Source: Strigamia acuminata (taxonomy: Eukaryota; Arthropoda; Chilopoda; Geophilomorpha; Linotaeniidae). From it: a DNA stretch of 64,000 nt. Below the pieces are notes generated by a model. That model did no database searches, was not told the origin of the DNA, and worked only from the letters and a program-made list of their open reading frames with translations. Of the stretch, positions 2,136 to 52,924 are shown in pieces. The position numbers and the translations under genes are program-made. Where the stretch lies: positions 496,001 to 560,000 of the forward strand of contig OX442322.1 of NCBI GenBank assembly GCA_949358305.1. Reading direction: 5' to 3'. The number at the start of each line of letters is the position of its first letter. Within the stretch, counting starts at the first letter, position 1.

Positions 2136-4442
2136 TCACGGTTTCGGCTCGTCATCAGACGATGGCTGCTGCTGAGAGGGGTCTTGCGGCTCCTCTTCAG
2201 TCTCAGTTGCAACCGCTGCGGGTCTTGCTGGGGCTGGCGACGTTCTCGCCGCCTCCAGCACAGACCGTATCGATGGCGGTGGGGGTATCAGTTGCCCGTC
2301 TTCCGCTTCCACCGCCTCCACCGCTCCTGCCGTAGCTGATGGCAACTGGGGGGGTAGCTGAGGCACCTCCTCTGTCGCCGCCGTCTTGACTGGGGCCAAG
2401 GCACGTCGCGCCGCCGCTTCTTCCCTCGACGCTGCCACGGTTTGAGCAGTGCGGGACTTCTTCCCCTTCCCCTTCTGCTTGCGAGCATCGTGGGTTGATT
2501 CGATTGGATCCCAGACGTCGGGGCTAAATTGGTCGGGATAACCCTTCCGTCTATGCACCCGCTTCATCACCACCTCTTCGTACGTAGGCGGGGGTGGCGG
2601 TGAGTGTGCCGCCAACTCTGGTGGCATCACGATAGGCACAGGCTCGTGGGACGCCGGTACGAACATCCGTTGGTGACCGTAGTTATTGGTCAACCTCGGG
2701 AGCCCGGCCAACGTCTCCACGTAGCCACGGCAGATTGCCGGGTCGAAATCTGCATGGTCCGCCCCCACCGTCTGGTCTAGAGTCCAACCTTGGACCACGA
2801 ACGGGGACGGCAGGTGGAGGTACCACGCGTTCATCGCAGAGCCCACTGCCCACGCGACGATGCGCACCGTCTCGAACCACCTGATTCTCCTCGCTGCGGC
2901 CGATGCGACAGGGGGAATGTTGAGGATTATCCACATCCTCTGCCTGATGAGTGCGACAGCCCTCGTCATCCTGATGTCACTCCCGGCCGCGTCCACAAAG
3001 CGCAGGTGAAGTTCTCTCCACCGCTTAGCTTCGGCGACCCAGAGCGCCACCACCTGAGCGTTCGCATGCTTGAGGCGCGGGACTGCCATCAGTACAAGTG
3101 CCGTGCAGACCACCGGAGCACCAGGCGGTAAGTCAGCGGCTTCGAGCGGAACCTGGCCCTCGACGGGTTCCAAGAACTCCGCTCCTTCGTGCTGTCCAGA
3201 GGGGTGTGGGTCCTGGGAAGGTCCTTCACCTCCTCCGGCAGCTTCTACTCCTGCGCTGACCATCTCGGGGTCGCCGCACCGCAACAGCTGTGCTTCGAGA
3301 GACAAACCCTCCAGCACCGACAATTGCAGCACATCGTCCTCCGAAACAGACAACTCCATCATCCCGTCATCTGGTGTTGGCATCGGGGATTGCACCATCG
3401 GTAGTTCGGCGCAAGCGCCGTCCTGCCTCTGGGAAACAATACACTCTTCCCGCGGGGTAGATGGCTCCGACCGTCCCGCGAGATTCATGAGGCTACCCCA
3501 AGTGCGATGGGGCAGTCCTCCCGTCCCGTCGAACTGCGCCACGGGAATTCCGAGTGCGAGTGAAGCGCAAGCGATTGCCTGCTCACTACAGCCGGCTCCC
3601 TCCGTGGGCATCTCGACCACCTGCTCGCCAGACGCTCCGGGAAGGTCCAGAGCGAGGGACACTGCTGAATCAGCCTGTACCTCGTCTCTGACCACTTCCA
3701 ACTGCTGTGTGGGTTCCGGCGTACCGTCCGCCACGGGGAGAGTGACAACCATCGGAACAGCCACAACATCCGGTTCGCTGGTACCGAATCCACACGATCG
3801 CTGTGCGACCGGCAGTACGGCAGCAGCTTCAGCCTCGGCCACCGCTTGCCTCGCCGCCTCGGCGGACCGTGCCTTCCTCGCATTGTCCTTGATACGACGA
3901 CGCAGCAGCTTCCCTGCGGACTCGATCTGAACCGCAGTTGCGCGCAGGTAGGACGCCCGCCACTCCGCCAACGAGGTCTCTAGCCGTGCGGTCATCTCTT
4001 CCGTCCACTTCGACGGCGCTGGCTCTTGCTTTTGGCGCTTCGGGTTCGGCTGGGCTGGGGCCTCTGCTGAAGCCGCCCGCCCCGCCGAAGGAGCAGAACC
4101 CGATGGACCAGGCTGCCCGTCCCGCGCTCTGACAGCTTCCACCGTCAAACCACGTGGTAGGAGGGCATGCCCATGTCGCAACAGGTCTTGCGTCCGCCTC
4201 TCCCACGAGTCGACGCTCATCCACGATACCATCGAACGGGCGCGACTCCGGTCGCCGCCCGGTCGCTGCGAGTGGCGCGCATACCACCTCTGCCTGGGGA
4301 TGGAAAAATGCACCAGCCCCATGCCGAGGCAGTTGCCGCATGGTGAATCCCATCCGCCCGCTGATGTCTCCCAGCGCTCGCCTGAGCAAACAGGGCAGAT
4401 GTGCCACTGTTCGCTACCGTCGCCGCCACCATTTCCCGAATT
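2136..4442 (-). CDS. ORF3 of element A, main exon: zinc-ribbon protein of unknown function
   Basis: An open frame of 768 codons downstream of pol, where some Gypsy elements carry env. No signal peptide or membrane segment is visible. Near the exon start are two CxxC pairs (C16/C19 and C35/C38) as CPVCSG and CGNCLG, like half of a DnaJ-type zinc finger. A middle block beginning SKWTEEM is basic and helical. The C-terminal block contains VPRL, KRWRELH, RWFETVR and WYLHLPSP. ORF3 of D shares all three blocks. No in-frame ATG precedes the first cysteine pair. The frame opens just after a T-rich 3' splice site ending CTAG (4446-4443), and the predicted start exon at 5162-5167 joins in phase. The first internal ATG (4322) would lose both cysteine pairs. 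The exon is visibly GC-rich beside its AT-rich surroundings. Function unknown; nucleic-acid or protein binding is a guess. Confidence 0.7.
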   Translation of the reverse strand, partial: NSGNGGGDGSEQWHICPVCSGERWETSAGGWDSPCGNCLGMGLVHFSIPRQRWYARHSQRPGGDRSRARSMVSWMSVDSWERRTQDLLRHGHALLPRGLTVEAVRARDGQPGPSGSAPSAGRAASAEAPAQPNPKRQKQEPAPSKWTEEMTARLETSLAEWRASYLRATAVQIESAGKLLRRRIKDNARKARSAEAARQAVAEAEAAAVLPVAQRSCGFGTSEPDVVAVPMVVTLPVADGTPEPTQQLEVVRDEVQADSAVSLALDLPGASGEQVVEMPTEGAGCSEQAIACASLALGIPVAQFDGTGGLPHRTWGSLMNLAGRSEPSTPREECIVSQRQDGACAELPMVQSPMPTPDDGMMELSVSEDDVLQLSVLEGLSLEAQLLRCGDPEMVSAGVEAAGGGEGPSQDPHPSGQHEGAEFLEPVEGQVPLEAADLPPGAPVVCTALVLMAVPRLKHANAQVVALWVAEAKRWRELHLRFVDAAGSDIRMTRAVALIRQRMWIILNIPPVASAAARRIRWFETVRIVAWAVGSAMNAWYLHLPSPFVVQGWTLDQTVGADHADFDPAICRGYVETLAGLPRLTNNYGHQRMFVPASHEPVPIVMPPELAAHSPPPPPTYEEVVMKRVHRRKGYPDQFSPDVWDPIESTHDARKQKGKGKKSRTAQTVAASREEAAARRALAPVKTAATEEVPQLPPQLPSATAGAVEAVEAEDGQLIPPPPSIRSVLEAARTSPAPARPAAVATETEEEPQDPSQQQPSSDDEPKP

Positions 4443-5161
4443 CTAGATAAAATAAATAAAAAATTAATAAACTATATCAAGGAGTGAAAGGGGAAGGGGG
4501 GAAAGAAAGTTGGGCTGAGAGTATGACGTAAGGGCTATGAATGAGGATTCCGGCACGAGGGGGCGACAAAATCAACCTCCCACGCGAGCACATGACGTCA
4601 GTGGATGTTACACAATCGTCGAAGACACCGAGCTGGCGCAAGCCATTTTCGGTGCTCCGGCGATGCAAGCCGAAATAATTTCCTGAATTCGTTAAACCGA
4701 ATCAGGATGATATAAAATCCTGACCAAAGCGTGGTGCCTGGTCTAAGAAATGATGGTTGTAAGAATTTCACACACGACACGGCAAGGGATGGTGACGGCA
4801 ACGCAAACCGCAACCAACATGGCGGACCGTTCTGCACAACGGCCCGGCATGTCGGTGAAGTCTGGCGCCTGAATCAGAACCCAGTTCAGTCGCAGAAAAC
4901 ACGAACAAACCATCGATTGTGACAAAACACTAAATGGTCGAAACCACAAGTGTTTCAGTGAATCGACTCGACCGCGGCGGTCAAAACGACTTTGATCCGC
5001 CTGCGTTCCTAGCGAGGAGCGGCGGCCGAAACTGCCTGCTCGAGCGCTAAGTTGCACGTAATAACGGGGCTGGGGTACGAGAGAAAGCAATCGGTCACGG
5101 GTTTTAACGAGAAAAAGGGCCACAGTAAATGATGCAAAAAGGAAATAAATTTGTGTCTTAC
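4443..5161 (-). other. Predicted intron of ORF3-A
   Basis: On the minus strand it begins GTAAGA directly after ATGAGG and ends in a T-rich tract and CTAG. The length is 719 bp. No other gene was seen inside. The element D counterpart is 47214-48769. Splicing is inferred from the sequence alone. Confidence 0.55.
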
Positions 5162-5979: not shown

Positions 5980-8863
5980 CTAAGTTCCTGGCCAGAAAAA
6001 AATGCGTCGTAGCCTTTTCACCATGTCGGCTGCGTTATCCTGCGTGTAGCGAGGATGCAATCGAATGACGTCGAGGCAACGGTCAGCTAGCGGTGCAGGC
6101 ATCAGGATTTTTACGTCCAAGCCTTGCTCCGTTCTGGTCAGTGACGATTCGGGTGAGAACGGGGTATTGATACACAATTCTCCGCACTCGCCGAACGTAT
6201 AATCGGACATGTATTGCGCCATGGATGGTGGGAGTTGGGCCAGAAGACTGTCGTCATCTCGGTCCTCGTCTAACCATCTCATGATCGCGCTACAGTCGGC
6301 GTCTGCCCGCTGGTTCTGCCTAATCTCATCGTAAGACATGATCGCACCAGCGAGGCTTTCTGAGACAAGAGTGTGGGCAAGCATGGAAGCAGCTTTTTCT
6401 TCGCGTGAGGCCGCCAATGTCGTCTCATCGTCATCTAGGCCCACACGAGAAAGAGCGACTGCGATCCGATCGTCCACATCCCTCCTGAATTTAAACGAGA
6501 ATCTCACCTGTTGGAGTTGCATTGCCCACCGCACCAGGCGACCTGACGTGTTGATTGAGTGTAATAACCAAAACAACGCCACGCAACCTGTTTCGATTTC
6601 GAATTTTGAATACGCGATGAAAGATCGAAAGGAAGCGACTGCCTGCAGAACTGCCAGACAATCGAGTTCCGGCGGGCTTAACGCTGTCTCGGCGCCTTGC
6701 AGGTCTTTTGACCCCCAGATGATCGATCTGCGTGAGGACTGCACCGAGCCCGGTCAAACTTGCGGCAGCCTGGATGACAAAGGTCTTGCCGAAATCAGGC
6801 ATCGGCTGCACGATCCCACGCGAAAGATGATCCTTGAAAAATTCGAATACTCCCTGACACTCGTCGGACCAATTCCATTCCGCACCCACTGTGAGTAGGT
6901 CATCCAGCGGGTTCGACAGATGTTCCAGTCCCTCGATCGGCGGTGTGTCTCCTCCAAACATGCCAAGGAAACGTCGCAGCTGGGCGACATTCGCTGGTCG
7001 CGGGTAGTCCACGATCGCCTGAACACGGCGTTCGTCCGGTCGAAAACCTGCGGGAGTCATAGAATAGCCAAGAAAGTCCCAAGAAGTAGATATCACACAA
7101 GATCCAGACGGGCTAGCGGTCAAGCAAAATTTGCTCAGCCTGCTCAGCACGTCGGACAGGTGTGTCAGGTGTTCCTCAAAAGTTTTGCTGAACACCACAA
7201 TCGAGTCCAGGTAGGGCAACGCCCACTTAAACTTCGATTCGCCGAGCACCTTCCCCATCAGCCGTTGAAATGCCACAGGGGTATTCAACAATCCGTAGGG
7301 CAATTTCACGAACTAAAAGGTACCTTGAGGTGTGTAAAACGCCGTCTTAGGTCTGTCCTTGGGCGCAATCCTTACCTGAAAGCAGCCCATAGCCAGATCC
7401 AAAGTAGAGAAGAACACACTCCCTTCCAAACAGGCCAAAATCATGGGAATAGACGGGACCGGGTACGTGTCTCTCTCCGTGACTGAATTCAGCTGCCTAA
7501 AATCGATGCAAGCGTCAAAGGTTCCGTCAGGTAATATACTTATCACCGGCTGGTTCCTATAAGCACTGGCACTCTTTTCTATTTCACCCTTTTCCAGCGC
7601 GCATCTCACCAACCGGCGCAGAGCTTTCGCTTCAGCAGGGGATGTTGGTTTGATATCGCTTGAGAAGGGTGGCACATCACCCGTGGGGATCCGAAGTTCC
7701 ACCGTCGGATGACAGCCTCCTATCTCGCTGAAGGTGTGGCTGAACTCGTCGAGCACACGAGCCAATCTCATCCTCCGCATATCTTCTATTTTGCAGCCTT
7801 CCAACAAATCTAATTGTTTGGATGATAGTGACAGTGCGGCTGTGTCGACGCCGTGTTCCAGCGTGACCCTTGCCCACTTGTCAACATCTGCACCACTGTC
7901 GTCTAGCTGTCTAGGCCGAGGAGCGAAAGGAAACGTCATCCCTGGATTATCGGCTTTAAACCAATCGTTCCGGGAAATGCGAATTACAATGCCATATTCC
8001 CTCAACCAACTACACCCCAAAAGGATGAAGTTAGAAGAAGAAGGTAACACCGCAAACCGTAACCAATCTTCCCCCGTCTGCCAGCTGACGTACAACCTCA
8101 CCGTCCCCAAGGGACTGGTTACTCTATCGCCCGTCATAACCCTAACGAAATCATCACAGGGTTCAATCGAGGCTGTTAGTCCGTATTTCTCGGCCGCGGC
8201 ACTACTCATATACTGCCCTGAAGCAGCGGTATCCATAAGTGCCACCGCTTCGCGGTCGGAAAAACGAATGTCGACGAACGGGAGAGGGAAATCTCTGCCC
8301 AGTCCGGCGACACTCACTGTATCCCAGACCGCTCCGACGGCTAAGCCTACGAAACAGACCTGGTCGGGCGGTGAACCGTCTGCTACGACGCCTTCATCCG
8401 CCTCAACCATTTCCAGCGGCTGGGGTGGTGACCTCTGGTTGTAGAGTTCGGCGGGACAAACCACACCGTTCCCCGCGACCAGGTCTACCTCCTCCGGCTC
8501 GCTTTCAACGTCCGAATCGTCCGATGCAGCGGCGCGAGTTATCGTCGACCTGCTGGACAATTCCATGATACGTTTACTGAAGTCCAATTGCTGCGACACC
8601 GCGGATCTTGCCCAAGCTTCCGCCATGTCGCTGGCCTCGTTCCGCGCGCGAACAGCTGCTTTACGCGCCTGTTCCGCGGCAAAATTTGACCAAATTGCTT
8701 CGCCATGTGCAGCGGCTGCATCGAGCGCCGCCAACTGCTTTTCGCGTTGATATAACCGAATGAGTTCCATGACATCGTCCTGCGTCTTAATTTCGCACGG
8801 ATCGACGTCGCAAAGGTCAGCTAGTTCTCTGGCCCAAGCCGAATCAAGATCCTTGCTTGCCAT
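5980..8863 (-). pseudogene. gag-pol remnant of element A
   Basis: Starts at a true ATG (8863). About 100 N-terminal residues resemble the coiled, alanine-rich gag N-terminus of D. The capsid part and zinc knuckle are missing, and the frame runs directly into protease (DTAASG in place of the usual DTGA/DSGA), then RT. A stop replaces glutamine at 7315-7313, just before the FVKLPYG motif. The RT catalytic box reads YLDS instead of YLDD. A frameshift near 6740 separates RT from RNase H (SPPELDCLAV, ALSRVG). The frame ends at FFWPGT, the first zinc-binding part of integrase. The catalytic core and C-terminus of integrase are absent. It could not make its own transposition proteins. Confidence 0.85.
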
Positions 8864-10824: not shown

Positions 10825-12414
10825 TGTGACGATTACCTTCTGGAGATAGCAATTGCTAAACTAAAGTGTGAACTATCTGTGTGAAAATGTAAAATATGCA
10901 AACCTGATGTTTTCTCAAAACATATAACATTTATTCCGGTTTGAACCTTATATAAATACTATGCCTACAAGTGGCTAAAATGACGAGAAGTTAAACTATA
11001 CAGTTGTTTGGCAAAAGCCCTGAAATAATATCATTTGAAGGCTTCAGTCATGCAATAAGAATTTGTAACGGTCTTATTGCTGTGACGTAAAAGATGTCAT
11101 CTATGAATGGCTTTGGCTTCTAAATGGTCCGGGGTTTGGTTCTAAAAGGCGTGTAAATGGTTAGGCTGGGTGGGTTATATCCGAGAGGTGCGGTTGACTT
11201 TTCTGTATCGTCACACACATCGCATCGCAGATAATTGTTGTAATCAATAATTACCGCGAGATGTAACAATGTGAGAATAAATATTCATATTAATTCTATG
11301 GAATTAATCATGATATTTTAGAGTCACAAACTTAACTAAAACTATGAAAATAAGTAAAATATATTAAAATAGCGCCGAGCTATTTTTTGCCCCGAGTGCA
11401 ATCAACATCTAAGTTAGACTTAAATGTTCCGTCAAACCAATAACGAATTGAATCGAAATATCTCGCAGGAAAGGTTATCCATCGCCGGGAAATTACTCCA
11501 CTCGGTCCTGGCTGGCGGGAGAGTAACCGGGAAATTACTCCGCGTCGATTACTCTGATAATGCGTCTGTGAAATATAAATACTCCACTCTAGATTCTACA
11601 TTACCAATGCGTCTGTGAATTTTACTCCACTCTAGATTCTGCACTCTACAACGGAATGTTGGCATGAAGCTGGAGGGAGTGCGTCTGTGGGTTGTACCCC
11701 ACTCTAGATACTACACTTAAATGTGTCTGTGAATTACTCACTCTAGTTACAACATTTCTACAACGGAATGTTGGCATGAAGAGGCGGGCAGTGTGTCTGT
11801 GAGTCTTCTACCCACTCTAGATACTTACACTAAATACAAAGTATTTCTACAACGGATTGTCGGAACGCAGAGAAGTATAATATGTGCTCAAGTAATATCA
11901 GTATCAAACAAAAACAGAACAAGAGCGAGCTATATCCGTTTTGCAGGGGGATATATACTCGGTGAGGAGAATAGCTGTTCAGTGATCCAATGGGATCACT
12001 GGGCAGTCAAATCCATCCAATCCTAGGTCATAGGAAGTGGATACTCAGGACATAGTCTTCTACTAGGTCCAAAACAGGAACTGGATACGCAGGACACATT
12101 TTGGATTAAGTCCCTTTGACTATAATCCAAAAGGAGTCCAACTCACAGTGGGTGATGGGGGGTGACTTCACCAGGTGTAGAGTTTGCACATAATTCAATA
12201 GAATTATGTGACAAATAAATCAACTAGCATTTGAACATCCAAAAGTATTTAAAAGTGTCTAAAGTTGCAGTGGAATAAAATATAAATAGTAATTTATATT
12301 TTATTCACTCAAAAATTGTCGAAATTTGAATTTACCGCTAAAACGCATCAGCGCCATCTATTGGTGAAGTAATCGTCCTATACTAACAAAGTGCATGACA
12401 GTGTAACCGTCACA
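10825..12414 (-). repeat. 3' LTR of element B (1590 bp)
   Basis: Begins TGTGACGATTACC and ends CCGTCACA, a 7-bp inverted terminal repeat. It equals 23223-24812 at a constant offset of 12,398. Short open frames inside (for example from 11424 and 11793) occur identically in both copies because the LTRs are identical, and are not taken as genes. Confidence 0.93.
11561..11821. repeat. Iterated motif array in the B LTR
   Basis: CCACTCTAGA or close variants occur five times (11584, 11627, 11699, 11738, 11812), alternating with five copies of G(C/T)GTCTGTG(A/G) (11561, 11609, 11681, 11723, 11793). GGAATGTTGGCATGAAG occurs twice. The spacing is irregular, so this looks like a cluster of binding sites and not a simple satellite. 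The other LTR has the same array near 23959-24219. Confidence 0.7.
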
Positions 12415-12424
12415 AGTCCCCCTT
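12415..12424 (-). other. Polypurine tract of element B
   Basis: The element strand reads AAGGGGGACT directly against the 3' LTR. Confidence 0.75.
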
Positions 12425-13070
12425 AAATATATGTTAATACCTGTATTAACATACTATTTATTCCGAATATCTTGAGGATCAAGACCACACTGTCATCTAG
12501 GGGACTCGAGCTGTAATCCTTGGTAAGCAAAAACCTTTATTTTATATCTTAATAGTATAAATAAAGAGTATTTCTTAATCAAATGCTTCAAAAAATATTT
12601 ATTAAGGTTATAAAACTTTCAATTATCAATAATAGCTTCCATCTCTCTTTACAGGTGGACTTACAACTGCATCAAGAAAAGGCGATAACTTAAACTAACA
12701 TCAAACTCTTGTACCAAACAAATGATTAATAAAATTTAACAATTATTTTCACAAAACTTAACTTCTCACTGGAAATATAATGATTTGCAAAATAACACTT
12801 TACACGTTAAAATTCAAGTATTAAAATTAGTATTCATTTAAACAAACTCACATTGACTCGTAATCAAATTTTAACAAAATTGTTAATTTAAATATTAAAG
12901 ATCTTTGAATTATTCACAAAAACGGCATAAAATACACCTGAACCTGACTAAATCTTTGTTTCAACTCGGGTCAAGAAATGGAGATGGAGAAAATGGACTC
13001 GTTACTTCTGGTCTTGCCTTAAAAGGGAAGATATCGGGAAAGTAACGGATCCCGACATCGTTGACGCTTT
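12425..13070 (-). other. 3' non-coding region of element B
   Basis: About 650 bp of AT-rich sequence between the ORF3 stop and the polypurine tract. No gene seen. Confidence 0.5.
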
Positions 13071-14714
13071 CTAGTCCAACTCTTCATCCTCAATAAATCC
13101 TTCCATGGATGTAACAACTTCCGAGACGGCTGCGGGTGGAGAATTAAGTTGAATAGCTACCAATTCCGGTACTACATCTGTCTCAACGTCATGGGCCAGG
13201 GGATTCAGGAGCATTCTGTGTTGTTCCTCGGTGAATACTTCCAGGGGATCAGGCCCTCCTAACGGAATGGTGTTAGCGCTGGTTGGCTCGGAGAAAACCA
13301 AGTGATGGTCGGGTAAGCCGGAGTGCCATCCCTCACGAATCAACGGGTGTGCTGCTGCTGAGACCTGTTGCAAAATCTTACACCAAATAAAAGAGCGAGT
13401 TTGAAAAGATTCCGGCCGGGATGGATGGAAAATCCATTGGATCACGGCCAGTGGCACGCTCAAATCTGGAATTCGGTCGTTTGAAATCGACACACTAATA
13501 CGCTTAGCTGCTTCCAATAAAATTGGGAAATAATGTTCCACTTCCGCCTTAGTTTGCTCCGTGAGCGACATGTCTGGTCTCGGCATATATGGGTGGACCA
13601 GTAAAATAACCGGTTCAGCAGCGTGGCTTGCTTCTGGGAGCGGGATAGTCGCTACAATCATGTTGTTAGTCGACGTTCCCTCTGGAGAAGCGGCGGCTTG
13701 TGGACCAGAATCGGATGCAACCGGCGGAGAATCAGACGCAATAACTGACGTTGGAAGGTTTTCTGCCGAGGCAACTGGAGTTCCATCAATCGCAGGGGTG
13801 GGAGTTTCCGGCTCGCGTTGTGGCTCCGTAAATCCTCCTCGTGGAGTCGAGGTGCTGGACATTTGTGCCGGGTCTACATAAATAGCCTGCTCCGGGCCCT
13901 GGTGGATGAGGCCACATTCGCGACACATCGCCCAATTGCGTGCTGTCGGCGTACTTAGCCCCTTGACGATAAATGGAAGAATTTCTTCATTCCACATGCT
14001 GGATATGGCAACGCGCTTACCACCGTGACAGTTCACGCAGACTACGGCGTGAATGCCGGATAACAAGGACGACAACCATCCGCATCCTGCGCACAATGGG
14101 CAGAACATCAGCTTCGACTTTGGCATGATGTTAGTCCCCAAGGCGGCAGCTTCCATATCTCGAAATACGTGTTCTCTTCGCTGCTTCCGGTAACTTGGCA
14201 AATTTAGCTCCGATATCGAACGAGCTTGCGATGTTGGGCGGGTCAGCGCTTCGGATGAAGATGCCAACGTGGACTTGGTGGGTCCTTTGGATTTGCCAGT
14301 CTTGCCTCGACTAGCGGTATCACGCGGATTTCGTGGTCGGGCAAACTGCCTGCTGGTAGCTGGAGGCGGAGCTTCTTCAACCGATTCTTCTTCTTGTGAG
14401 AAGTCATCTTGGCGCCGTCTCCTCGAGGCAGAACGGGAGTATTGTGACGAGTCGTCAGAAAAATCCCAATTCGGCGCATCATAGGTTACAACACGCTGAC
14501 TAGCTTGACGGCCTCTGGAAGGACGCGAGTCGGTCGGGCTAACACCCATGGCGGTCCTAATTCGTGGCGGTACGAGATCCGGGTTATCACGGGCCCAGTT
14601 GGCGACGAGCTCGGGGTCAGAGGAGGGATTAACAAAGCGATAATCCGTCTCTTCCGATTCTTCTGGATCCCAATGCACGTACTGTCGCTTGCTAGCACGA
14701 CCTCGGCGACTCAT
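13071..14714 (-). CDS. ORF3 of element B: zinc-ribbon protein of unknown function
   Basis: 547 residues from the ATG at 14714. The N-terminal 190 residues are basic, serine/arginine-rich and probably disordered. A cysteine domain follows: C205, C208, C211 (CPLCAGCGW), C226, C229 (CVNCHGGK), C264, C267 (CRECG), then YVDP with D281. ORF3 of C has the same eight positions with exactly equal spacing. After a proline/serine-rich linker comes a helical C-terminal block (about 375-470) with MPRPDM and REGWHSGLP, which loosely resembles the C-terminal block of ORF3 in A. The end is acidic. No signal peptide or membrane segment. A 3' splice-site-like TTTTCTTGAAG ends five bases before the ATG, so a spliced mRNA is plausible. 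Function unknown. Confidence 0.75.
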   Translation of the reverse strand: MSRRGRASKRQYVHWDPEESEETDYRFVNPSSDPELVANWARDNPDLVPPRIRTAMGVSPTDSRPSRGRQASQRVVTYDAPNWDFSDDSSQYSRSASRRRRQDDFSQEEESVEEAPPPATSRQFARPRNPRDTASRGKTGKSKGPTKSTLASSSEALTRPTSQARSISELNLPSYRKQRREHVFRDMEAAALGTNIMPKSKLMFCPLCAGCGWLSSLLSGIHAVVCVNCHGGKRVAISSMWNEEILPFIVKGLSTPTARNWAMCRECGLIHQGPEQAIYVDPAQMSSTSTPRGGFTEPQREPETPTPAIDGTPVASAENLPTSVIASDSPPVASDSGPQAAASPEGTSTNNMIVATIPLPEASHAAEPVILLVHPYMPRPDMSLTEQTKAEVEHYFPILLEAAKRISVSISNDRIPDLSVPLAVIQWIFHPSRPESFQTRSFIWCKILQQVSAAAHPLIREGWHSGLPDHHLVFSEPTSANTIPLGGPDPLEVFTEEQHRMLLNPLAHDVETDVVPELVAIQLNSPPAAVSEVVTSMEGFIEDEELD

Positions 14715-16020
14715 TGCATCTTCAAGAAAATATAAATTTTATTTGAGAACATGAATCAACCGTCGGAAATTAATTTAATTTCAAATTAAATTAATTGTCG
14801 ACCAACAACTGGATTAATTTCATAATTAATTCTTAAGTTCCCTTGTTAGCGTGTTTCCTCCATTTGTCGAATAATTATTAAGATTAATAATTATTCTCGA
14901 CTTGGCATATAATTTCATTTTATCGTTTAACACAATATCGCTGATAAAATATTCAAATTAGTGTTTATTTAATGAAATAAACCTAATTTTTGTATCTACA
15001 CGACATAATAACTAAAAAACATATAAAAATATTAAAAAAAAATATTTTTGTAAGTGTTTTTTAGCATCCGACAATAGTCATTTTACATGGTTTTAATTGT
15101 ACGAATAATTCCACAATTCGTCCGAGTAAATAATTTACTACCGACATCTGGTGGCGTTTGCCCCTATCATACACGTGACTTGTTAACCCATGTCTGCTCA
15201 CCAATTTCCAAGGAACTTAAGAGATATTTTATCTTTCAAAAAATAAACACTTACTAACTAGGTGTAGTCCTAGAAGGGTATACTTGGCTAGTTTAATGTC
15301 TAGCTTCACGTATTTGCGAGGGCTGCTCGGTTCCGGCGATGTTGGCCGATAAAAACGTTGTGCGGCGCGTGCGAATTCTAAGTCCGCCGTAATGAACGCT
15401 TAACCAAAATAAATGTTGTCAATTAATGTCAAAATATTATAAATTTTGACAAAATATTGCTTAAATATTTACCGGGAATTCACTTAGTGAGTTCGTGAAA
15501 GGCTTACTCGCGATTTTGTCCACGAGATGGTTTCGATAATCAGCGTCGTGTCGATAATTTCTGAATTTGAACTGATATTTGTCAAATGAAAAAATCAGTA
15601 AAATAAACGATAAGTGTTCAAAATCATCTAGATTTTAACTCACTAAATTTCAGCGAAAATCCGTTAAAGCGTCGAAGGGTCGAGAATAATCCTTGATTTC
15701 AGTCCAGTACAAAACTTGGCGAACAAGTGAGTGATAATCTCAAACCAGGGGTTAAGGGGAGTTTCGAGGAGTAATTTGATTGGTTTGTAATTACTCATCT
15801 CGAAGTTTCTATTAACCCAAAGGGGGAAACACAGTTTCAAGTAAATGTTTACACGTAGATTAATTTGAATACAATCAGCTTGTGTAAAAAATAACTCAAA
15901 CATTTGTTAAATTTTATCCACATCAAAAAAAAATGTTTTTAATTAATAAAATTTAACAATTCTTCGTGAATATGATTGGAAATATTTATTTAAAATAAAA
16001 TATTTTCAATATATTGTGTC
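14715..16020 (-). other. Non-coding region between pol and ORF3 of B
   Basis: About 1.3 kb, very AT-rich, with small palindromes (for example around 14775-14800). By position it should hold the ORF3 promoter or intron, but I found no CRE/CCAAT arrangement or start exon like those of A and D. A GTAAGT on the minus strand (15254-15249) is one possible donor. No gene seen. Confidence 0.45.
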
Positions 16021-22346: not shown

Positions 22347-23202
22347 AATACTCAAAGAAATACACGTACAAAAGAAAAAATAAACTTTAACTGAACTAGC
22401 GTAAATGTAACACGCTTAATATTAAACTAAGAAATAATTTGAAAAAATACAACCTTAGCTGCTGAAACTGAAGTGGCTTCGGAAAAACTGTCCTATTGCG
22501 TGGTCAAGAATGGTCCAAACGGGCACTGGTCACAAAGGCACAACTGGATGGTCGCACTGTCGAAAAGCAAGTGTGGCTGAATATTGGTTGTCAAACTAGC
22601 TTCCGGAAAATCTCCTTTGTCAAGACAGTCTGCTGTGATTGGCGATGTTGACAAATTCCTGATAATTTCTAATCCGAAATTCTCAACAATGTCACATCTG
22701 GATGACCTACTCCGAGCTGCATCGTGAGTGGTTCTCTTTGTCACATTCTTTACTTTGTTAAAGATTAAAATAATAATCAAAAACATTGAAAACAGAACAA
22801 TAGAAACTTGGTCAAGTTTTTAACCAGCAAAATAAAATACTTTAACTTTTTATTTTTCAGTCAGCAGGATTTCTAGTCAAATTCGTTTTTTGATCAAAAT
22901 TCAAGGTTTCGAAATTTCCCAGAATATAGCTGAATATTCTGGGAAACTCAATAAAATCATAATAGATTTTTCGTAAGAGATTCGGAATTATAATGAGTTT
23001 TTTTCAAAATAATCCAAAAATTCGAATTCAGATATTTCCAAAAGATAATGAGAATTTTTTGAAAACAAATGGATATTTCACAGTAAATTTATAGAGAAAA
23101 ATCGGAAATTTTCTAATTATAATATCTATATAAAATAATCAAGAAAATTCATTTTTCAATTTACACTTTGATCACAGAGTTCACTTCGATAAAATGCAAT
23201 TA
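22347..23202 (-). other. Leader of element B
   Basis: About 860 bp between primer site and gag. A 97-codon frame (22493-22786) has no recognisable domain and I do not call it a gene. Packaging signals would be expected here but I cannot identify one. Confidence 0.5.
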
Positions 23203-23220
23203 ATCTCGGTGGGACCTCCA
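23203..23220 (-). promoter_or_regulatory. Primer-binding site of B, tRNA-Gln
   Basis: The element strand reads TGGAGGTCCCACCGAGAT two bases after the 5' LTR. The complement, ATCTCGGTGGGACCTCCA, is what I recall as the 3' end of animal tRNA-Gln including CCA. From memory, not a search. Confidence 0.8.
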
Positions 23221-23222
23221 CG

Positions 23223-32200: not shown

Positions 32201-33452
32201 CGTTTGGCGTATAAAACGCCGTTTTTGGACGATCTTCCTCACGCATTTCGACTTGGTAGTAACCTTTAACAAGGTCGATAGACGTAAAATACTTTGCCGG
32301 ACCAGTATTATGCAATAAAAGGTCAATACTTGGCATTTGTATTACTTCGACTTCAGTGATGGCATTTAGCCACCGGTAGTCGATGCACATCCTATACGAG
32401 CCGTCAGGCTTCGCAACAATGACGGGATGACTTATGAAGGGCCCTTTGGCCTTTTCAATGAGTCCATCCTGTTCCAATTCTGCAGCTAGTTTGGTCATAA
32501 TGGCTCTCTTGGCCGGGTTATACATTCTATACTGCATTTTGGGCAATGAATGCCCTTCTTTGAACTTAATACGATGTTGGGTCACGTTAGTGCACCCAAC
32601 TTGATCACGAAATACATTCGGTATCGAGTTAACCACTTCGCGAAGTGCTAGTCTTTGTTCCGGAGTGCAGTCGCTCTCCTCAACTAATTTTTCATCCCAA
32701 GTCAACACAGGAGTGTCTGTTAACTCAATTGAGTTGAGAGTGGACGACAGTCCTAAATAATCGAAAGTAATTCGATTTAATGGGGCGAGGGCCAAATTGG
32801 CTTCTTCCGATTCATAAGGAGCGGACCAATTAGGTTTATCTGCACAAGAGAACTCTTGTAAATGTGGATGCGGACTAATTTTCTGTCTGCGCATGAAATT
32901 GTGGCCAAGTATCAAGCCACAAACTCGTTTTGCTAAAACGATGAAATTCATTGGTGTAAATTCATCAGCCCATTGCACGCACAAAGTTATTTGTCCGACA
33001 GGCTTGTGTGCTACGCCTACAGCGTTAACCAACATGTTTCTGGGAGCCTCTTGCAAAAATTCCGGCAGAGCCTGAGTTTCAGACAAAAGTTGTTCTCCAA
33101 TGTAACATTGAGATGCTCCTGTATCCAGGAGCGCGTTATAGGTGAGCCCACCAATTGTGATCTTCATTCGAGGATCATCTTTATTATTACCTAAAGTAAT
33201 ATTGTGCAAATTATTGCCGCCTATGACTCTGTTGAGTCGGCGAAGTCTACAGAATTTCTTCGTGTAGCACTTGTGAGGAAATAATGTCAGATTTTTTAAT
33301 TGTTCTGTCATTTCTTGCAAATTTTCCTCTACTCCGCCACTATGACTAGTGGCTACTTCAAGACAAGTTGTGTCTACATCCATAAATAAAGATTCCGACG
33401 TAGCATTAGCCACTTCTGGGGGATGGAATAAACCTTCGTCCCCCGGATCTAG
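29253..33452 (-). CDS. pol: Gypsy pol polyprotein of element C
   Basis: Continuous frame of 1399 codons from the frameshift site. Counting from 33413: protease LLDTGAS with D97; RT with TSIDL and YLDD (442-445); RNase H (TDASHEG, ELECLAV, ADALSR); integrase with the HHCC zinc site (HGHPLSGHAG, CTHCAQYK), catalytic MDLMGPKP, VSDNGKQF and NPTERANR; a GPW motif; and a very basic tail with KPNPKYA, shared in part with pol of B. All active-site residues are present. Expressed by -1 frameshifting as a fusion with gag. Confidence 0.93.
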   Translation of the reverse strand, partial: LDPGDEGLFHPPEVANATSESLFMDVDTTCLEVATSHSGGVEENLQEMTEQLKNLTLFPHKCYTKKFCRLRRLNRVIGGNNLHNITLGNNKDDPRMKITIGGLTYNALLDTGASQCYIGEQLLSETQALPEFLQEAPRNMLVNAVGVAHKPVGQITLCVQWADEFTPMNFIVLAKRVCGLILGHNFMRRQKISPHPHLQEFSCADKPNWSAPYESEEANLALAPLNRITFDYLGLSSTLNSIELTDTPVLTWDEKLVEESDCTPEQRLALREVVNSIPNVFRDQVGCTNVTQHRIKFKEGHSLPKMQYRMYNPAKRAIMTKLAAELEQDGLIEKAKGPFISHPVIVAKPDGSYRMCIDYRWLNAITEVEVIQMPSIDLLLHNTGPAKYFTSIDLVKGYYQVEMREEDRPKTAFYTPNGPYQFVRMPFGLCNAPCTFQRLMEGILGSALQDYALVYLDDVIVYSDNWDDHLKHVRDVLERLNQANMTINKAKSRFGRTELKFLGHWIKPEGLFGDPDKISAIMKFPTPTCAKDIQRFHGMTNFFRKFVPNHGTIAAPYTRMMNEKTPFEWGDEQTEAFNKIKELLCGDNCLHKPDMTLPFVVMTDASHEGLGAVLCQDVDIFDEKKQKNISVPKPVAYASRVLRGAEKRYTTPELECLAVVWAIDRFKPYLEYGTFTLESDAEALKWLMRTPEPSGKFGRWALRIQCGNFKIVFRKGAANQVADALSRAPLTEEDIPLRDHVEPVEIKQYWPEWDGNPSVSLNRALEKREYLASVRSYFSENSKECSEEKEGEEVQETLYSALTEVLKEVPPTRREIIDAQLLDTECKRIREYLLNDKVVGIPQSEIKEWKNKVKNYCLDKKEIDGDQMIIYFNPSFEEELNDSGNGFKAVVPSSLVKRVLFACHGHPLSGHAGMSKTLEKTRLIYFWPGMSRSVRNYVKSCTHCAQYKPIQQKRHAAPYTPHNMTNPWECINMDLMGPKPAGRSQNQYIFVIIDNCTKFVEIKALTKATSANCVQELRSVTNRWGHPKKIVSDNGKQFVSDIYNEYCEMYNIRPSHTSTYHAQANPTERANRDIKTMLALYTDVHTQWPRYLDEFAFAMRNNVSAATGSSPMLLNTGRIVTLPFDPRIIKHANPFDKENPEKYVRVLLDILRRSHQEMHRRIQLNFERHRKIHEQKFVITEFEVGDLVWKQTHILSCADKNISAGFAEKRDGPWEITKVLPGGAYKLRKLSDGLIEKSVNIKALYPYTPSYPIETWKVGQKSASYSPQDNPKWMDESNQLPDAEEMELIPETSSEIPMELSDSTSVQIDKSAPTKSKHRHRQRLTAMEKKAALKRDEVPKKPPRKPRKPQPIVPRTSTRPRRERKPNPKYADENFVRNITAVFKKPYQQRGKASKFCWN

Positions 33453-35677
33453 TTTTTTGAACTAGTCGCACTTGAATCAGCAGATTCTGGCTTGATCAAA
33501 GTCTTGACCATTTCTGCCAACGAGTTAGTCAGCGAAGTTTGTAACTTATTTTCAAAAGTATTAAGTTTCGCATCAAGTTTAGCATCTAGTGTTGCATCCA
33601 ACACTTCTTGAGTTATCCACCTATTATTAGGACGTTTAGAAGTAGGATCCACAGTCGGGGAATCCGGCGTACTTCGTTTTTGCAACTCTTCAGAGTTGAA
33701 ATTTGCACGTGGTTTTAAATCTGGACATTCTCGACGCATGTGTCCAGGTTTCTTACAGTGGTAACAAACTAATTGACCACGTCTGGTCTGATCCACTACT
33801 CCATTTATTAAATAAACGGCCTCGCATTCCTCAGGTAACTCTTCTTCACAAATATTAAGTTGTTCTTGTGAATCCAAAGTTAAAGATTTAACATTTGTCT
33901 TTGGCTGAGGACGAGTGTCAGTTTTCCGAGGTGGGAAAACAACTGGATTGGAAATATTTTCCCTTGCTCCATTAGCTGTACGACTGTACAAGCCTTTATT
34001 TTTTGTTATAACGGTATAAATCTCTGTCAGAGGCAAATCCGCTATGCCTTGCGTATGCAAAAGCAAATCATTAGCAGGAGTTACACTCCCGATAAAAAGA
34101 CAACCAGCCCCTTTTGCATCAAGACTGTCTTGTAATATCCATAACTGGTAATATTTGTGCATAAAGTCGTAAAGACTTTCTGTTTCTAGTTGTTTCAACT
34201 TAGTTAGTTGGTTTGTCCGCTCTTGTCGAGTGGCTACAAACTGTTCTTTGAACGCCTGTTCAAATACTTCCCAAGATATGAAATCTTCTCTCCTTTCATG
34301 AAACCAACCATGCGCTTGCTCGGTTAAATAACCGGCCACGCCTTTAACAAGCATGTCATCGAGTGACATGTTTCGCAGGAAAGCGACATTTTTTACAATA
34401 TTGAGAAAGCGTTCGCTTTCTTCTGCTTTTCCGGAGAATACAGGGATATCTGGTGGTTTCAAACAGTTAGTTTGAGGGACAGTGGCGGAACTTTTTCCAG
34501 CTTGCATTAATTTATGCATGGTCGTGGCAATTGACGCGAGGTCATCAGCCGTCATTCCAAAGCTACTGGGGGGGCGCGAGTTGTCGTTTGACGACCCGCC
34601 ATTATTTGGTTGACTCGAGTTATTTTGACTTGAGCCACCACTATTAGGGTTGAAATTATTCGACCCTCCTTGATTTGACCTGCTGTGGTTACCAAAGTTC
34701 GAATGGTTATTCGAATTGCCTTGGTTCCCATAATTCGAATGATTATTAGAATTACCCTGATTGTCAAAATTCGGACGGTTGTTCGAACTTTCTTGATTAC
34801 CAAAATTCGGACGATAGTTCGAATTACCTGGCGTACCCCGATTCAAATAGTTATTTGAATTTCCTGGAGTTCCAGTAGAAGGATTATTTGGGTTATTCGA
34901 GTTCGGAGGAACTGGGTGACCCCTTTGTATGTTAGGTGCTGGACTAGAATTGTTTGCAAATCTAGAATTTGGGTCAAAACGGCGGTTTGGACCTCTTGTC
35001 GCACCTGAATTTGGGTTCAAATTTCCAGCGAGATTCGGACAACTATTGGATCCGTTTGGAAAACTTGGATTAGGGTTGGCCATATTAGGCGGACCCAAAT
35101 TCGCTCTGGTGAACGTATTCTCAAAGTTCTCTGGATTTGTAAATCCTCTTTGTTGGTTGCGAGCGAAGTTATTCGCTCGTAATCGTTGTTGGAAAGCACG
35201 ATTAAAATCTCCTGGTGTCAAATTCGACTGATCTTGACGAGGAGGTTGTGCATTTTTATTTCTATATCTAGAAATAGGCGTCGAAGGAGTGGGACTAAAA
35301 TTATTTAATCTTTGGCTGGCTGGGGAATTAGGATGCTCCGATGTAGCACGTTGCGCGTGTACAAAATCTAACACTTCGGTCAAAGATCTAAACTGGTTTG
35401 GGTTCAAACCATGATCCTGACAAAATAATAGACCGCCTCGGCCTAAATGAGAACCTTCAGGAATGCATTCCTCTTCTCCAGGCGGAGTAGGTTCACGTGG
35501 AGCCCTATTCTCTCCAGATGGTCCGGCTGTTTCATTTGAAACGCCATTATGGACCGCGTGGTTTTCCACTTCTTCAGTTCCATTAGGAACAGGTATAAAC
35601 CCGGATAGATTCATTCCACCGGTCAAACAAGTTCTTTCCTTACCACGGGTGTTCATGTGATGCTGGTTATTAGTCAT
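33449..35677 (-). CDS. gag: gag of element C
   Basis: 742 residues from a true ATG. Residues about 190-370 are strikingly asparagine-, glycine- and serine-rich with short repeats. A helical capsid-like block follows (AHGWFHERREDFISWEVFEQAF, LTKLKQLETESLYDFMHKY). One CCHC zinc knuckle, CYHCKKPGHMRREC, lies at about 638. The tail has lysine/leucine heptads that may form a coiled coil. Structural particle protein; ends at the frameshift site. Confidence 0.9.
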   Translation of the reverse strand: MTNNQHHMNTRGKERTCLTGGMNLSGFIPVPNGTEEVENHAVHNGVSNETAGPSGENRAPREPTPPGEEECIPEGSHLGRGGLLFCQDHGLNPNQFRSLTEVLDFVHAQRATSEHPNSPASQRLNNFSPTPSTPISRYRNKNAQPPRQDQSNLTPGDFNRAFQQRLRANNFARNQQRGFTNPENFENTFTRANLGPPNMANPNPSFPNGSNSCPNLAGNLNPNSGATRGPNRRFDPNSRFANNSSPAPNIQRGHPVPPNSNNPNNPSTGTPGNSNNYLNRGTPGNSNYRPNFGNQESSNNRPNFDNQGNSNNHSNYGNQGNSNNHSNFGNHSRSNQGGSNNFNPNSGGSSQNNSSQPNNGGSSNDNSRPPSSFGMTADDLASIATTMHKLMQAGKSSATVPQTNCLKPPDIPVFSGKAEESERFLNIVKNVAFLRNMSLDDMLVKGVAGYLTEQAHGWFHERREDFISWEVFEQAFKEQFVATRQERTNQLTKLKQLETESLYDFMHKYYQLWILQDSLDAKGAGCLFIGSVTPANDLLLHTQGIADLPLTEIYTVITKNKGLYSRTANGARENISNPVVFPPRKTDTRPQPKTNVKSLTLDSQEQLNICEEELPEECEAVYLINGVVDQTRRGQLVCYHCKKPGHMRRECPDLKPRANFNSEELQKRSTPDSPTVDPTSKRPNNRWITQEVLDATLDAKLDAKLNTFENKLQTSLTNSLAEMVKTLIKPESADSSATSSKN
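33452..33458 (-). promoter_or_regulatory. -1 ribosomal frameshift site, gag/pol of C
   Basis: A AAA AAC in the gag frame, followed at once by the gag stop TAG. The -1 frame is pol, open from this point. Same arrangement as in B. Confidence 0.82.
34640..34860 (-). repeat. Asparagine-rich repeats within gag of C
   Basis: Imperfect units of about 36 bp encoding variants of NQGNSNNHSNFG, at least four in a row. This gives a prion-like, low-complexity segment. No equivalent run of repeats is seen in gag of B. Confidence 0.7.
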
Positions 35678-36784: not shown

Positions 36785-36802
36785 ATCTCGGTAGAACCTC
36801 CA
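36785..36802 (-). promoter_or_regulatory. Primer-binding site of C, tRNA-Gln type
   Basis: The element strand reads TGGAGGTTCTACCGAGAT, two bases after the LTR. It differs from the B site at two positions and would fit a tRNA-Gln whose acceptor stem starts GGTTCTA. From memory of the tRNA. Confidence 0.7.
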
Positions 36803-36804
36803 CT

Positions 36805-40286: not shown

Positions 40287-40626
40287 TGTGACTGCTATGG
40301 TCTCTTCCAGTGTAGTCAGGGGACTGAGAACACTTGGTAGGGACGCATACTTCACGTAAATGACGGAGACTTCCCACAATATTGGTTGGTTGGCCTTTAT
40401 TGCGTTGTCTAGGGGTATAGGGAAACCCGTCACCCGCTGCAGTGGTGCCACGAAGGCACACCGCACCGGCAACCGACCCGCCACACACTGGGTGGGAACC
40501 CAATGCGTGGCGTGGTCGATTCGACTTAACATTCGTGTCGTACTTACCTACGACCCACGCGTCCACTCATGGAGGCTGTATAACGGTGGGAGCCGTCATA
40601 CTGAGTATCATCGTGGTGAATGGTGA
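40287..40626 (-). repeat. 5' LTR of element A, truncated (340 of 593 bp)
   Basis: Begins TGTGACTGCT and matches 811-1150 with one mismatch noticed (40419-40421 region). At 40627 it changes to unrelated DNA, so the outer 250 bp are lost. Confidence 0.85.
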
Positions 40627-44547: not shown

Positions 44548-44558
44548 TCTCCCCCCCC
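44548..44558 (-). other. Polypurine tract of element D
   Basis: The element strand reads GGGGGGGGAGA against the 3' LTR, as in A. Confidence 0.75.
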
Positions 44559-45299: not shown

Positions 45300-47213
45300 T
45301 CAGGGACCCGGCGCACCCTTCGGTGGCTGCTCTGCGTGCGGGATCTCCTGCGAGACCTCGTCACTGAGGATTATCACCTCCTGCGACTCGAAAAAGGGCG
45401 GGGAGATGCTCTCCGCCTCTCTGGTAGACAAGCGTGATTCGGGGAGCGGGCCCAACGTGGCTCTCTCCCCCGTCATTGCAGATGACATAGTAGCCGTCGC
45501 AGTGGCGCGAGTACGTCTGGCCTTCCGTCCCTTCTCACGACGGGAATGGCGAGGTCTACCTGGCGTCCTCGGGATGTCATCCGGAAAGTCGCTTTCTGCC
45601 GACGGCGGAGAAGGGGGCATGGTTGCATAAGCTCCTGCTCCCGACTCCGCTATCGGTTGCGTCGTCTGGGTCCCCCGGAGTCCTGGGCTACCAACCTCCA
45701 GCGACAGACCGATCAAGGGTGCGCCAGCACTGTTGATCCGCTCTCCCCAAAGTGGCTCGACCAGCGCTTCCATCGTCTCCGCTTCAGCTGCCAGATCAGC
45801 CGGTGAGGGCGTGGTCTTGGCTGCCGGCAATATCGGCCATCTCTGGACGCTCAAGGGCGGCGGAAGGTGTAAATACCAGCGTCTGACCGGCTCGCCCAGG
45901 CACGCCTGTAGAGCCTGCATGATTTCATCCCACCTCCTCAAGCGTGATGCTTCTGGCGCCTTGGCCGGAACCTGAAGGGACATGAGCATCTTGAGGCGCA
46001 GCACGGCCAGTGCGTCCGCTGTCCGGGCCTCGTTCCCGGAAGCATCGACCAGCGCAATGTGCAGACTCCTCCACCTATTTAGTTCGGCTATCCACAGGTT
46101 CATTACCTCAGGAGATACCGTGGCCAAGCGCGGCACTCCCTTGATGATGCCTTCCCTCGTCACGTACTGGGTACCCTGTGGTTCCCACGGGATTGCTGGC
46201 AACGGGTTACACTGATCCGGTTCCAGTGTCGTCGCCGCATCATAGGTCAGGGGAGGCGACACCGTTGCCGGTTTCCCGCTTCCCTGTGCCTCTGACTCCA
46301 AACCGTTGTTGGCGCGCTGCTGATCATGGGTCGCGAGGGACAAGTCCCCCCGTCCATTCACAGGTGGCACGGTGCCAGCACCTGCTTGCTCCCTGGTGTC
46401 CATGGGAGGGGGCGTCATCGGTCCACGTCTTGGTGCCCGTTCCGTCTCCACAACGTGGGATTGGGCAGGAGGCGTGGTCGCTCGCTCCGTCTCCATCGGC
46501 TGGTCGTCCTGGGCGATGGTGCCGTCGGAATCCGCTGACTCGATGTCGGAACCGTTGTCGACCTGCGTAGAGACCGCCACGGCCTCCAACTCTGCCTCTG
46601 CCAACGCCCGACGTCGTTCTGCCGCTGCACGGGCCTTCCTCGCGTTCTCCTTGATGCGGTTCCGCAGGTGCTTGGACTGGAACCGCTCCTGGGCGGACGT
46701 GGCGTTGGGCAGCCGCTTCCGCCAGTCCGCCATGACGACTCGCAGCTTTTGCTCTTCCACCACAGTCCACTTACTGGGTGGCGGAGAAGTCCGTTGACGC
46801 TTCGGGGCGGGCTGCGATAGCCCTGCCGCTGCTGCGCCGTGCGGATTCGGTCGCGGGGCCGTCGGACAATAGGAACGAGAGGGACCCGGTTGGGGGTTGG
46901 AGAAATCCACCACCGGTCCATCCACGTACGGAGGAACTTCCCGGGAAAACCCAGCGTCGACCAAGGCGTCTAGGCGGGCGTCTCAACTGGGGGTGCTCGC
47001 CCAAGTAACCGTTGATCGGCGCGAACGGTCACCACCCGGGCAGGACTGGTGTCGCTCGAACCATCGCTGCAAAGGCCGCGACGCGTGAACGAAGCCAAAG
47101 CCCATGCAGTTCTGGCACGGCGTGTTCGGTTGGACGATCCACTTCTGTCCCAAGCAGATGGGGCAGGTGCTCCACCAGTCCCACCTTCTGCTCTCGCAGT
47201 CTCCAGAATGTCT
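45300..47213 (-). pseudogene. ORF3 of element D, main exon with one nonsense codon
   Basis: 637 codons. Two CxxC pairs lie near the start, C17/C20 (CPICLG) and C33/C36 (CQNCMG). A middle block beginning PPSKWTVVEE and a C-terminal block with VPRL, NRWRSLH, RRWDEIMQ and WYLHLPPP match ORF3 of A throughout. A TGA at 46985-46983 stands where A has a tryptophan codon, so it is a single-base nonsense change after codon 76. The rest stays open. The frame starts after a pyrimidine-rich 3' splice site ending GTTATAG (47214) and joins in phase to the predicted start exon at 48770-48775. No signal peptide or membrane segment. Function unknown. Confidence 0.7.
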
Positions 47214-52921: not shown

Positions 52922-52924
52922 AAT

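What the first reader, a model, noticed from the sequence alone, without database searches (positions are those of the whole stretch)
2136..47213. A third gene, not env, follows pol in all four large Gypsy elements
ORF3 occurs in A (2136-4442), B (13071-14714), C (26672-28189) and D (45300-47213), always between pol and the 3' LTR. All carry paired CxxC motifs of the form CPxCxG and CxNCxG. None has a signal peptide, membrane segment or other envelope trait. Proteins of 500-770 residues add greatly to element size, so they are unlikely to be neutral cargo in four elements of two subfamilies. I know of no described Gypsy lineage with such a gene, but I cannot search.
Basis: partly seen in the sequence, partly recalled or inferred. 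Interest (0 to 1): 0.92.

Follow-up and report, generated by a model that had tools for sequence, protein, structure and literature searches.

The report
Retrotransposon third gene, not envelope
Two groups of virus-like jumping genes in this animal genome carry a third gene, where retroviruses keep their envelope gene, that seems to make no envelope but a cysteine-motif protein preserved by natural selection, so it probably does a needed job in the element's life cycle.

Summary
ORF3 is open in A, B and C; in D one in-frame stop cuts it. All four carry the CPxCxG...CxNCxG motif, found in no other six-frame peptide of 30 aa or more in the window. It is a selected gene: 76 of 78 (B), 73 of 83 (C) and 52 of 63 (A, fragments included) listed genome matches have no internal stop (107, 109, 114), and median dN/dS among chosen stop-free copies is 0.10, 0.09 and 0.18 (121). 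For C, 60 of 116 scored pol copies have a scored ORF3 downstream (138), as do 6 of 7 hand-picked others (141). No membrane segment or family match points to env. A Strigamia maritima (centipede) gene model holds the B/C type (35).

Corrections: A belongs to a conserved non-autonomous lineage (no capsid domain or integrase core, RT motif YLDS). And Cer1 of C. elegans has a non-env gene there: CERV, a spliced nuclear protein needed to export genomic RNA (PMC10309623).

In 14 of 14 A-type sequences the frame opens after an acceptor-like TAG and the first Met lies beyond the cysteine motif. Best reading: a spliced, CERV/Rev-like protein acting on the element's own RNA (inferred). Homology to CERV was not tested; its cysteine spacing differs.

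The parts
2136..4442 (-). ORF3 of element A: frame of 768 codons; Cys motif at residues 16-38, first Met at residue 41
4443..4445 (-). acceptor-like TAG behind a T-rich tract; the frame opens right after such a TAG in 14 of 14 A-type sequences aligned, window copy included
7313..8863 (-). element A ORF1: Gag N-terminus fused to protease and the start of RT; CA/NC absent
5980..7312 (-). element A rest of RT (motif YLDS) and RNase H, with a frameshift; integrase core absent
812..1402 (-). LTR read as the 3' LTR of A and also the 5' LTR of a neighbouring copy running off the left edge
10825..24812 (-). element B: LTRs 10825-12414 and 23223-24812 identical over 1590 bp; 4-bp target duplication CGGT; inserted in the 3' LTR of C
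13071..14714 (-). ORF3 of element B (ATG at 14714; frame opens at 14738)
16021..20328 (-). pol of element B (PR, RT, RNase H, IN)
20298..22346 (-). gag of element B; -1 frame change to pol
22277..22285 (-). candidate splice donor GTG|GTATGT in the gag N-terminus of B, in frame (worked out by hand) with the GAAG|A acceptor-like site before ORF3
   Evidence: unproven
26672..28189 (-). ORF3 of element C (ATG preceded directly by CTGCAG)
29253..33461 (-). pol of element C
33449..35677 (-). gag of element C
45300..46982 (-). ORF3 of element D, part after the in-frame stop
46986..47213 (-). ORF3 of element D, exon-like part with the Cys motif, opening right after a TTATAG
49243..52961 (-). pol of element D in three pieces (broken frames)
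52925..54502 (-). gag of element D (CA-like domain)

Best explanation
ORF3 encodes a non-envelope accessory protein made from a spliced subgenomic RNA (gag-pol removed as an intron). It most likely acts in the nucleus, through its cysteine (probably zinc-binding) module, on the element's own RNA, letting unspliced genomic RNA leave the nucleus, as CERV does for C. elegans Cer1 and Rev does for lentiviruses (Rev from general knowledge). Shown here: the gene is real, conserved and under purifying selection (A, B, C types), sits after pol, is not env-like, and in A/D has its Cys region upstream of the first in-frame AUG of its own frame. Inferred: splicing, zinc binding, nuclear site, RNA export.
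For: Purifying selection. The Cys residues of the motif are invariant in 14 of 14 A, 21 of 21 B and 21 of 21 C sequences. A type: the frame opens right after a T-rich TTTAG/TCTAG in 14 of 14 sequences (window copy included), first in-frame Met at residue 41 or 75, beyond the Cys motif; D has the same design. C: CTGCAG|ATG in 5 of 6 sequences, CTACAG in 1 of 6; B: GAAG|A in 6 of 7 (window copy included in both). Pol-ORF3 spacers of 1.0-2.0 kb hold many ATGs; in B and C they are AT-rich (31-32% GC) against 52-57% in ORF3. Donors scoring 6 or more lie within 120 nt of the gag ATG in B, C and D, at a background of 1.5 per kb; in frame with the acceptor in B and D (frames worked out by hand). Precedent: CERV is an ORF between pol and 3' LTR, not env, part of a protein from a spliced mRNA whose first exons use the gag frame, with a Cys loop needed for export, a KRKK signal and a role in gRNA export (PMC10309623). 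PKRQK/PKRQR in A/D and basic N-termini in B/C look like nuclear signals (by eye). The A lineage, without CA/NC and integrase core, still keeps its own ORF3, which fits a factor that prefers its own RNA.
Against: No RNA data. In C the best gag donor (35643) is out of frame with the CAG|ATG acceptor; A has only a weak in-frame donor (8488, score 4.2). One of 6 fetched B copies has a different sequence upstream of ORF3. CERV's cysteines (C193, C195, C200, C269) are spaced unlike CxxC...CxxC, and no CERV sequence was compared. Structure models are useless (mean pLDDT 36 and 35). Zinc binding rests on motif and a sub-threshold Anti-TRAP match (E 0.087).
Confidence: 0.4

Rival explanations
1. ORF3 is a counter-defence protein: it blocks small-RNA or chromatin silencing of the element in the host germ line.
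For: Fast divergence between A and D (33% in the shared helical stretch; no blastn match between the two ORF3s) although selected; disordered acidic/basic make-up (by eye); retained by the non-autonomous A lineage.
Against: No match to any profile family. Pairwise dN/dS is low throughout (quartiles 0.08-0.20), no sign of positive selection at this level; a trans-acting suppressor would not need its own copy in A.
Confidence: 0.22
2. ORF3 is a DNA-binding regulator of LTR transcription (Tax-like, or like the proposed role of Retand TRP28 proteins).
For: Basic helix-rich stretch after PSKW in A/D (predicted helix 148-216, the region with the best block pLDDT, 55-76); nuclear-type basic motifs (by eye).
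Against: No DNA-binding Pfam match; A and D LTR regions are 74-82% alike in the aligned pieces while ORF3 has diverged beyond blastn, which argues against LTR-specific co-evolution.
Confidence: 0.15
3. ORF3 is a particle or cell-to-cell transfer component (an env-like or FAST-like role without an envelope).
For: Env position; insect Gypsy elements without env use small membrane proteins for transfer (PMC11952523, passages read).
Against: No clear membrane segment or glycosylation pattern (A borderline at 1.60); 500-770 aa and hydrophilic, unlike sORF2.
Confidence: 0.1
4. Captured host sequence carried as neutral cargo, or a decaying old env.
For: Higher GC than gag/pol in all four elements may point to a different origin.
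Against: dN/dS 0.09-0.18 and mostly open frames among listed copies.
Confidence: 0.03

Closest known systems
CERV of Cer1 (C. elegans Ty3/Gypsy; PMC10309623)
   Same: Large ORF between pol and 3' LTR, sense strand, not env, protein of 517 aa, no obvious homologs outside nematodes, divergent between species, spliced with an acceptor before the 3' exon, cysteine-rich loop, basic nuclear signal.
   Different: CERV's cysteines (193, 195, 200, 269) are not CPxCxG...CxNCxG; no sequence comparison made; B and C have an own ATG at ORF3; splicing unproved here.
Bdelloid rotifer ORF3 (GDSL, DEDDy, env-like; PMC5408684)
   Same: Additional ORF3 after pol in animal LTR retrotransposons; [quoted passage not shown]
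   Different: Those ORF3s are recognisable enzymes, envelopes, TM or coiled-coil proteins, and the paper reports no significant departure from neutrality within the genome; these match nothing and are strongly constrained.
Plant additional ORFs, e.g. Retand TRP28 (PMC11963269, PMC7264820)
   Same: Long pol-3' LTR region with a conserved protein of unknown, possibly regulatory function.
   Different: Retand ORFs are antisense; ORF3 here is sense.
MDG1-group sORF1/sORF2 (PMC11952523)
   Same: Accessory proteins of insect Gypsy elements without env.
   Different: Short; sORF2 is a membrane protein; upstream of gag except in some Lepidoptera.
DnaJ-type / Anti-TRAP CxxCxGxG zinc modules
   Same: CPxCxG/CxNCxG pair resembles the repeat (recalled); weak Anti-TRAP profile match in C.
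   Different: Only two repeats, a W after the first, no match above cut-off.

Membership tests
Ty3/Gypsy (Metaviridae) elements | PR-RT-RNaseH-IN order, LTRs, PBS next to 5' LTR, PPT next to 3' LTR | tested here: met
   B and C: (PBS and PPT by eye); TGTGAC...GTCACA LTR ends and CGGT duplication in B; the 5' LTR of C is truncated. A lacks IN core and CA/NC. A/D sequence beside the LTR does not start with TGG.
Envelope protein | Signal peptide, transmembrane segment, glycosylation, env profile match | tested here: not met
   (maximum 19-residue hydropathy 1.08-1.60; 0-2 sequons); no signal-peptide predictor was run
CERV (Cer1) | Sense ORF between pol and 3' LTR, not env | tested here: met
CERV (Cer1) | Encoded by a spliced mRNA with gag-frame first exons | tested here: inconclusive
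   Conserved acceptor-like sites; donors in frame in B and D, not in C, weak in A
CERV (Cer1) | Cys loop with C193, C195, C200, C269 spacing | tested here: not met
   Compared with the residue numbers given in the paper text only
CERV (Cer1) | Sequence homology to CERV | not tested
   No CERV sequence was fetched
CERV (Cer1) | Required for nuclear export of genomic RNA | not testable with these tools
   Needs experiment
Bdelloid ORF3 enzymes | GDSL or DEDDy domain | tested here: not met
   No Pfam family at E up to 1 in A, B, D; only sub-threshold Anti-TRAP in C
Retand TRP28 aORF | Antisense to gag-pol | tested here: not met
   ORF3 is sense; third codon positions of the sense frame vary most in the 4 ORF3 comparisons
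DnaJ zinc finger | Four CxxCxGxG repeats, profile match | tested here: not met
   the four-repeat definition is recalled

The most novel reading that the evidence does not exclude
ORF3 is an old, independently evolved Rev/CERV-like RNA-export system of an arthropod Gypsy clade, based on a CPxCxG...CxNCxG module and specific to its own RNA. It is so needed in cis that a stable non-autonomous lineage (A) has kept its own ORF3, together with a Gag-N-terminus-protease-RT-RNaseH polyprotein whose RT carries a conserved YLDS motif, after losing capsid and integrase, which a partner (D-like) supplies.
Probability: 0.25. Interest if true: 0.82.

Novelty: new variant of a known kind. Interest (0 to 1): 0.62.

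Why it matters
CERV is the one functionally tested non-env gene in the env position that my searches turned up. A second, unrelated-looking and abundant case under strong selection would suggest that spliced regulatory genes are a general alternative to env in animal Gypsy elements, and would make the question 'how do intron-containing retrotransposon RNAs leave the nucleus' testable outside nematodes. The A lineage adds a natural experiment: which genes a retrotransposon must keep when it gives up capsid and integrase.

Tried and rejected
Env, GDSL/DEDDy and TRP28 membership: rejected as above. Neutral cargo: rejected by dN/dS for the A, B and C types. My own early idea that A is a recently broken, decaying copy: rejected, because relatives share the YLDS motif and the missing domains and their PR-RT-RNaseH is under purifying selection; the in-frame stop in A's RT is private among the six sequences compared. 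Shared helical domain between A/D and B: not significant (76 and 46 of 500 shuffles reach the scores). Protein homologs: ORF3 B residues 175-315, 91 candidates, none; A+D alignment, 8000 candidates scored, none; ORF3 C was not searched in that database. Viral contigs, six scans (ORF3 B, pol B, pol D, pol alignment, ORF3 B/C alignment, ORF3 A), none; prokaryote genomes with pol B none; phage records none for ORF3 C; PDB: B none, A three weak hits at E 0.21-1.4, C and D not searched. Fold searches not run because both models are low-confidence. ORF3 D copies in the genome: search did not complete, so selection on the D type is untested.

Papers, as seen: PMC10309623 outline/abstract, passages and section 10 part 1 of 2; PMC5408684 passages; PMC7264820 part 1 of 3; PMC11963269 abstract and outline; PMC11952523 passages; PMC12440569 part 1 of 5; PMC7998251, PMC4244043, PMC6327564 passages; others search listing only. 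Statements on literature rest on ten answered searches.
Full report
Observation. The window is a nest of LTR retrotransposons; A-D lie on the - strand. B (10825-24812) has identical 1590-bp LTRs and a 4-bp duplication CGGT, and sits in the 3' LTR of C; the matching LTR of C (37437 on) shows the uninterrupted site. C lies inside A, and D lies to the right. ORF3 is open in A, B and C and cut once in D. Each open frame exceeds the longest frame in all 300 shuffles of its own sequence. The motif CPxCxG..W...CxNCxG, in its loosest form, is found in the four ORF3s and in no other of 1201 six-frame peptides.

It is a gene. The window lies in a 237.5-Mb assembly (G000, contig C13). A protein search with ORF3 of B gave 78 scored copies (of 751 candidates), 76 without internal stop. 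C gave 83 scored (of 787), 73 without stop. A gave 63 matches (58 of 448 candidates scored), fragments included, 52 without stop, from 100% down to 58% identity. The lists hold the best matches only. For the substitution analysis I hand-picked copies free of stops and spread in identity, so it leans to intact ones: B 20 of 78 plus the window copy, C 20 of 83 plus the window copy, A 14 sequences, window copy included (16 stretches were fetched; two shorter ones were left out). Median pairwise dN/dS: B 0.10 (553 codons), C 0.09 (519 codons), A 0.18 (758 codons, dS 0.03 to 1.64). Variants private to one copy have a higher pN/pS than shared ones: C 0.22 against 0.06, A 0.29 against 0.15, B only 0.11 against 0.09. 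That is the direction expected of selection acting between rounds of transposition. The motif's cysteines are invariant in all 14, 21 and 21 sequences. D was not tested: its search did not complete.

It belongs to the element. A search with the end of C pol gave 116 scored copies (of 2710 candidates); 60 of the 116 have a scored ORF3 copy downstream on the same strand, 59 of these 60 at 1008-1030 nt and one at 2605 nt, and none on the opposite strand within 6 kb; 60 of the 83 ORF3 copies have a scored pol upstream. Both lists are truncated, so I probed 7 of the 56 others, hand-picked with a full-length pol frame, at the expected place: 6 of 7 hold ORF3 sequence, 4 whole in the probed stretch, 2 disrupted or partial, 1 none. 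So the refuting case, absence from most relatives, is not met for C; it was not counted for A, B or D. The gene model T1IMA5 of the centipede Strigamia maritima joins protease, integrase tail and an ORF3 48% identical to C over 120 residues; it is the only one of 120 listed pol hits with ORF3, but many of those records are single genes on short contigs where ORF3 could not appear. The host is therefore probably an arthropod, perhaps a myriapod; this is not shown.

What it is not. For the four ORF3s no Pfam or NCBIfam family reaches its cut-off, the PDB gave nothing for B and only weak hits for A, and no hydrophobic segment exceeds 1.60, the borderline value of A. Two AlphaFold models failed (mean pLDDT 36 and 35).

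One family or two. B and C share a domain with three CxxC pairs. A and D share a Cys exon, a PSKW region and a helical region. Between the pairs only the Cys motif is alike, at suggestive strength. In a tree of 103 of 123 RT-RNaseH-IN cores, D joins B, C and one unnamed database protein (P0001) with 91% SH-aLRT support, below the tool's 95% star, so one acquisition at the base of this clade is possible but unproved.

Expression. ORF3 of B and C is not in the pol frame, and 1.0-2.0 kb with many ATGs separates ORF3 from pol. In 14 of 14 A-type sequences the frame opens after a T-rich TTTAG or TCTAG whose last three bases are the preceding stop, although the sequence around it differs between copies, and the first in-frame Met is residue 41 (9 sequences) or 75 (5 sequences), beyond the conserved Cys motif. 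That a stop precedes the frame is by construction; that it is always a TAG behind a T-rich tract is not. D has the same design. The Cys part of A/D must therefore be joined to a start codon from elsewhere, most simply by splicing. C has CTGCAG|ATG in 5 of 6 sequences and CTACAG in 1 of 6; B has GAAG|A in 6 of 7. Candidate donors in the first 120 nt of gag exist in B, C and D; they fit the frame in B and D, not in C; A has only a weak one further on. All this is sequence evidence; no RNA was seen.

Element A. A's first ORF fuses a Gag N-terminus (related to that of D, 1 of 500 shuffles reaches the score) to protease and RT. CA/NC and the integrase core are missing and the RT motif reads YLDS. 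Of 8 upstream stretches of 5 kb fetched for A-type ORF3 copies, 5 hold this pol; all 5 have YLDS and no integrase core, and in 4 of the 5 the Gag N-terminus is seen running straight into protease. The other 3 hold no A-type pol within 5 kb. Between the two groups, at dS 0.59-1.07, protease-RT-RNaseH has dN/dS 0.08-0.28. A thus represents an old non-autonomous lineage that conserves ORF3 and a partial polyprotein, not a rotting copy. The in-frame stop in A's RT is private among the six sequences compared; copies open there exist. In blastn-aligned pieces A and D are 74-89% alike in LTR and leader but 65-68% in pol, as expected if A depends on D-like proteins through shared cis signals.

Mechanism and novelty. 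[quoted passage not shown]). ORF3 matches it in place, size, strand, probable splicing and a cysteine module, but the cysteine spacing differs and homology was not tested. I therefore say it works like CERV (confidence 0.4), not that it is CERV. Other described additional ORFs (PMC5408684, PMC7264820, PMC11963269, PMC11952523) show that a third gene as such is a known kind. New here, as far as ten paper searches go: the protein family, its strength of constraint, and its retention in a conserved non-autonomous lineage.

Noticed in passing
5980-8863 and L085, L089-L092: Non-autonomous Gypsy lineage whose RT reads YLDS and lacks integrase core and capsid, yet protease-RT-RNaseH stays under purifying selection (dN/dS 0.08-0.28).
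   Followed up: partly
1-1402 and 39477-40626: Two A-type copies in tandem seem to share one LTR; 1150 bp are 99.65% identical between the two places.
   Followed up: partly
L058, L059, L060 (G000 C1:39554685-39564781): Three A-type ORF3 copies with the same score follow one another every 3889 bp on one strand; 5 kb upstream of the first holds no A-type pol (L088), perhaps ORF3-bearing units without pol.
   Followed up: no
ORF3 of the four elements: ORF3 has higher GC than gag and pol of the same element, GC3 too (e.g. C: GC3 0.56 against 0.33-0.38), with 29-32% GC spacers in B and C.
   Followed up: partly
60816-61499: Fragment of ribosomal protein uS12/RPS23 (Pfam E 6e-6; PDB E 6e-6) inside a region with Copia-like pieces.
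   Followed up: partly
59073-59789: Weak methyl-CpG-binding-domain match (E 0.0085, below cut-off) next to a retroviral SH3-like match.
   Followed up: no
40567-42594: Three frames of 157-311 codons between A's truncated 5' LTR and D's 3' LTR, with no Pfam match; one repeat-protein PDB match over 25 residues.
   Followed up: partly
57368-57391 and 788-811: The sequence beside the 5' LTR of the A/D type (TTGAGGGCCCTGTCC...) does not begin with TGG, unlike B and C (TGGAGGT..., recalled as tRNA-Gln type); the primer of A/D is unclear.
   Followed up: no
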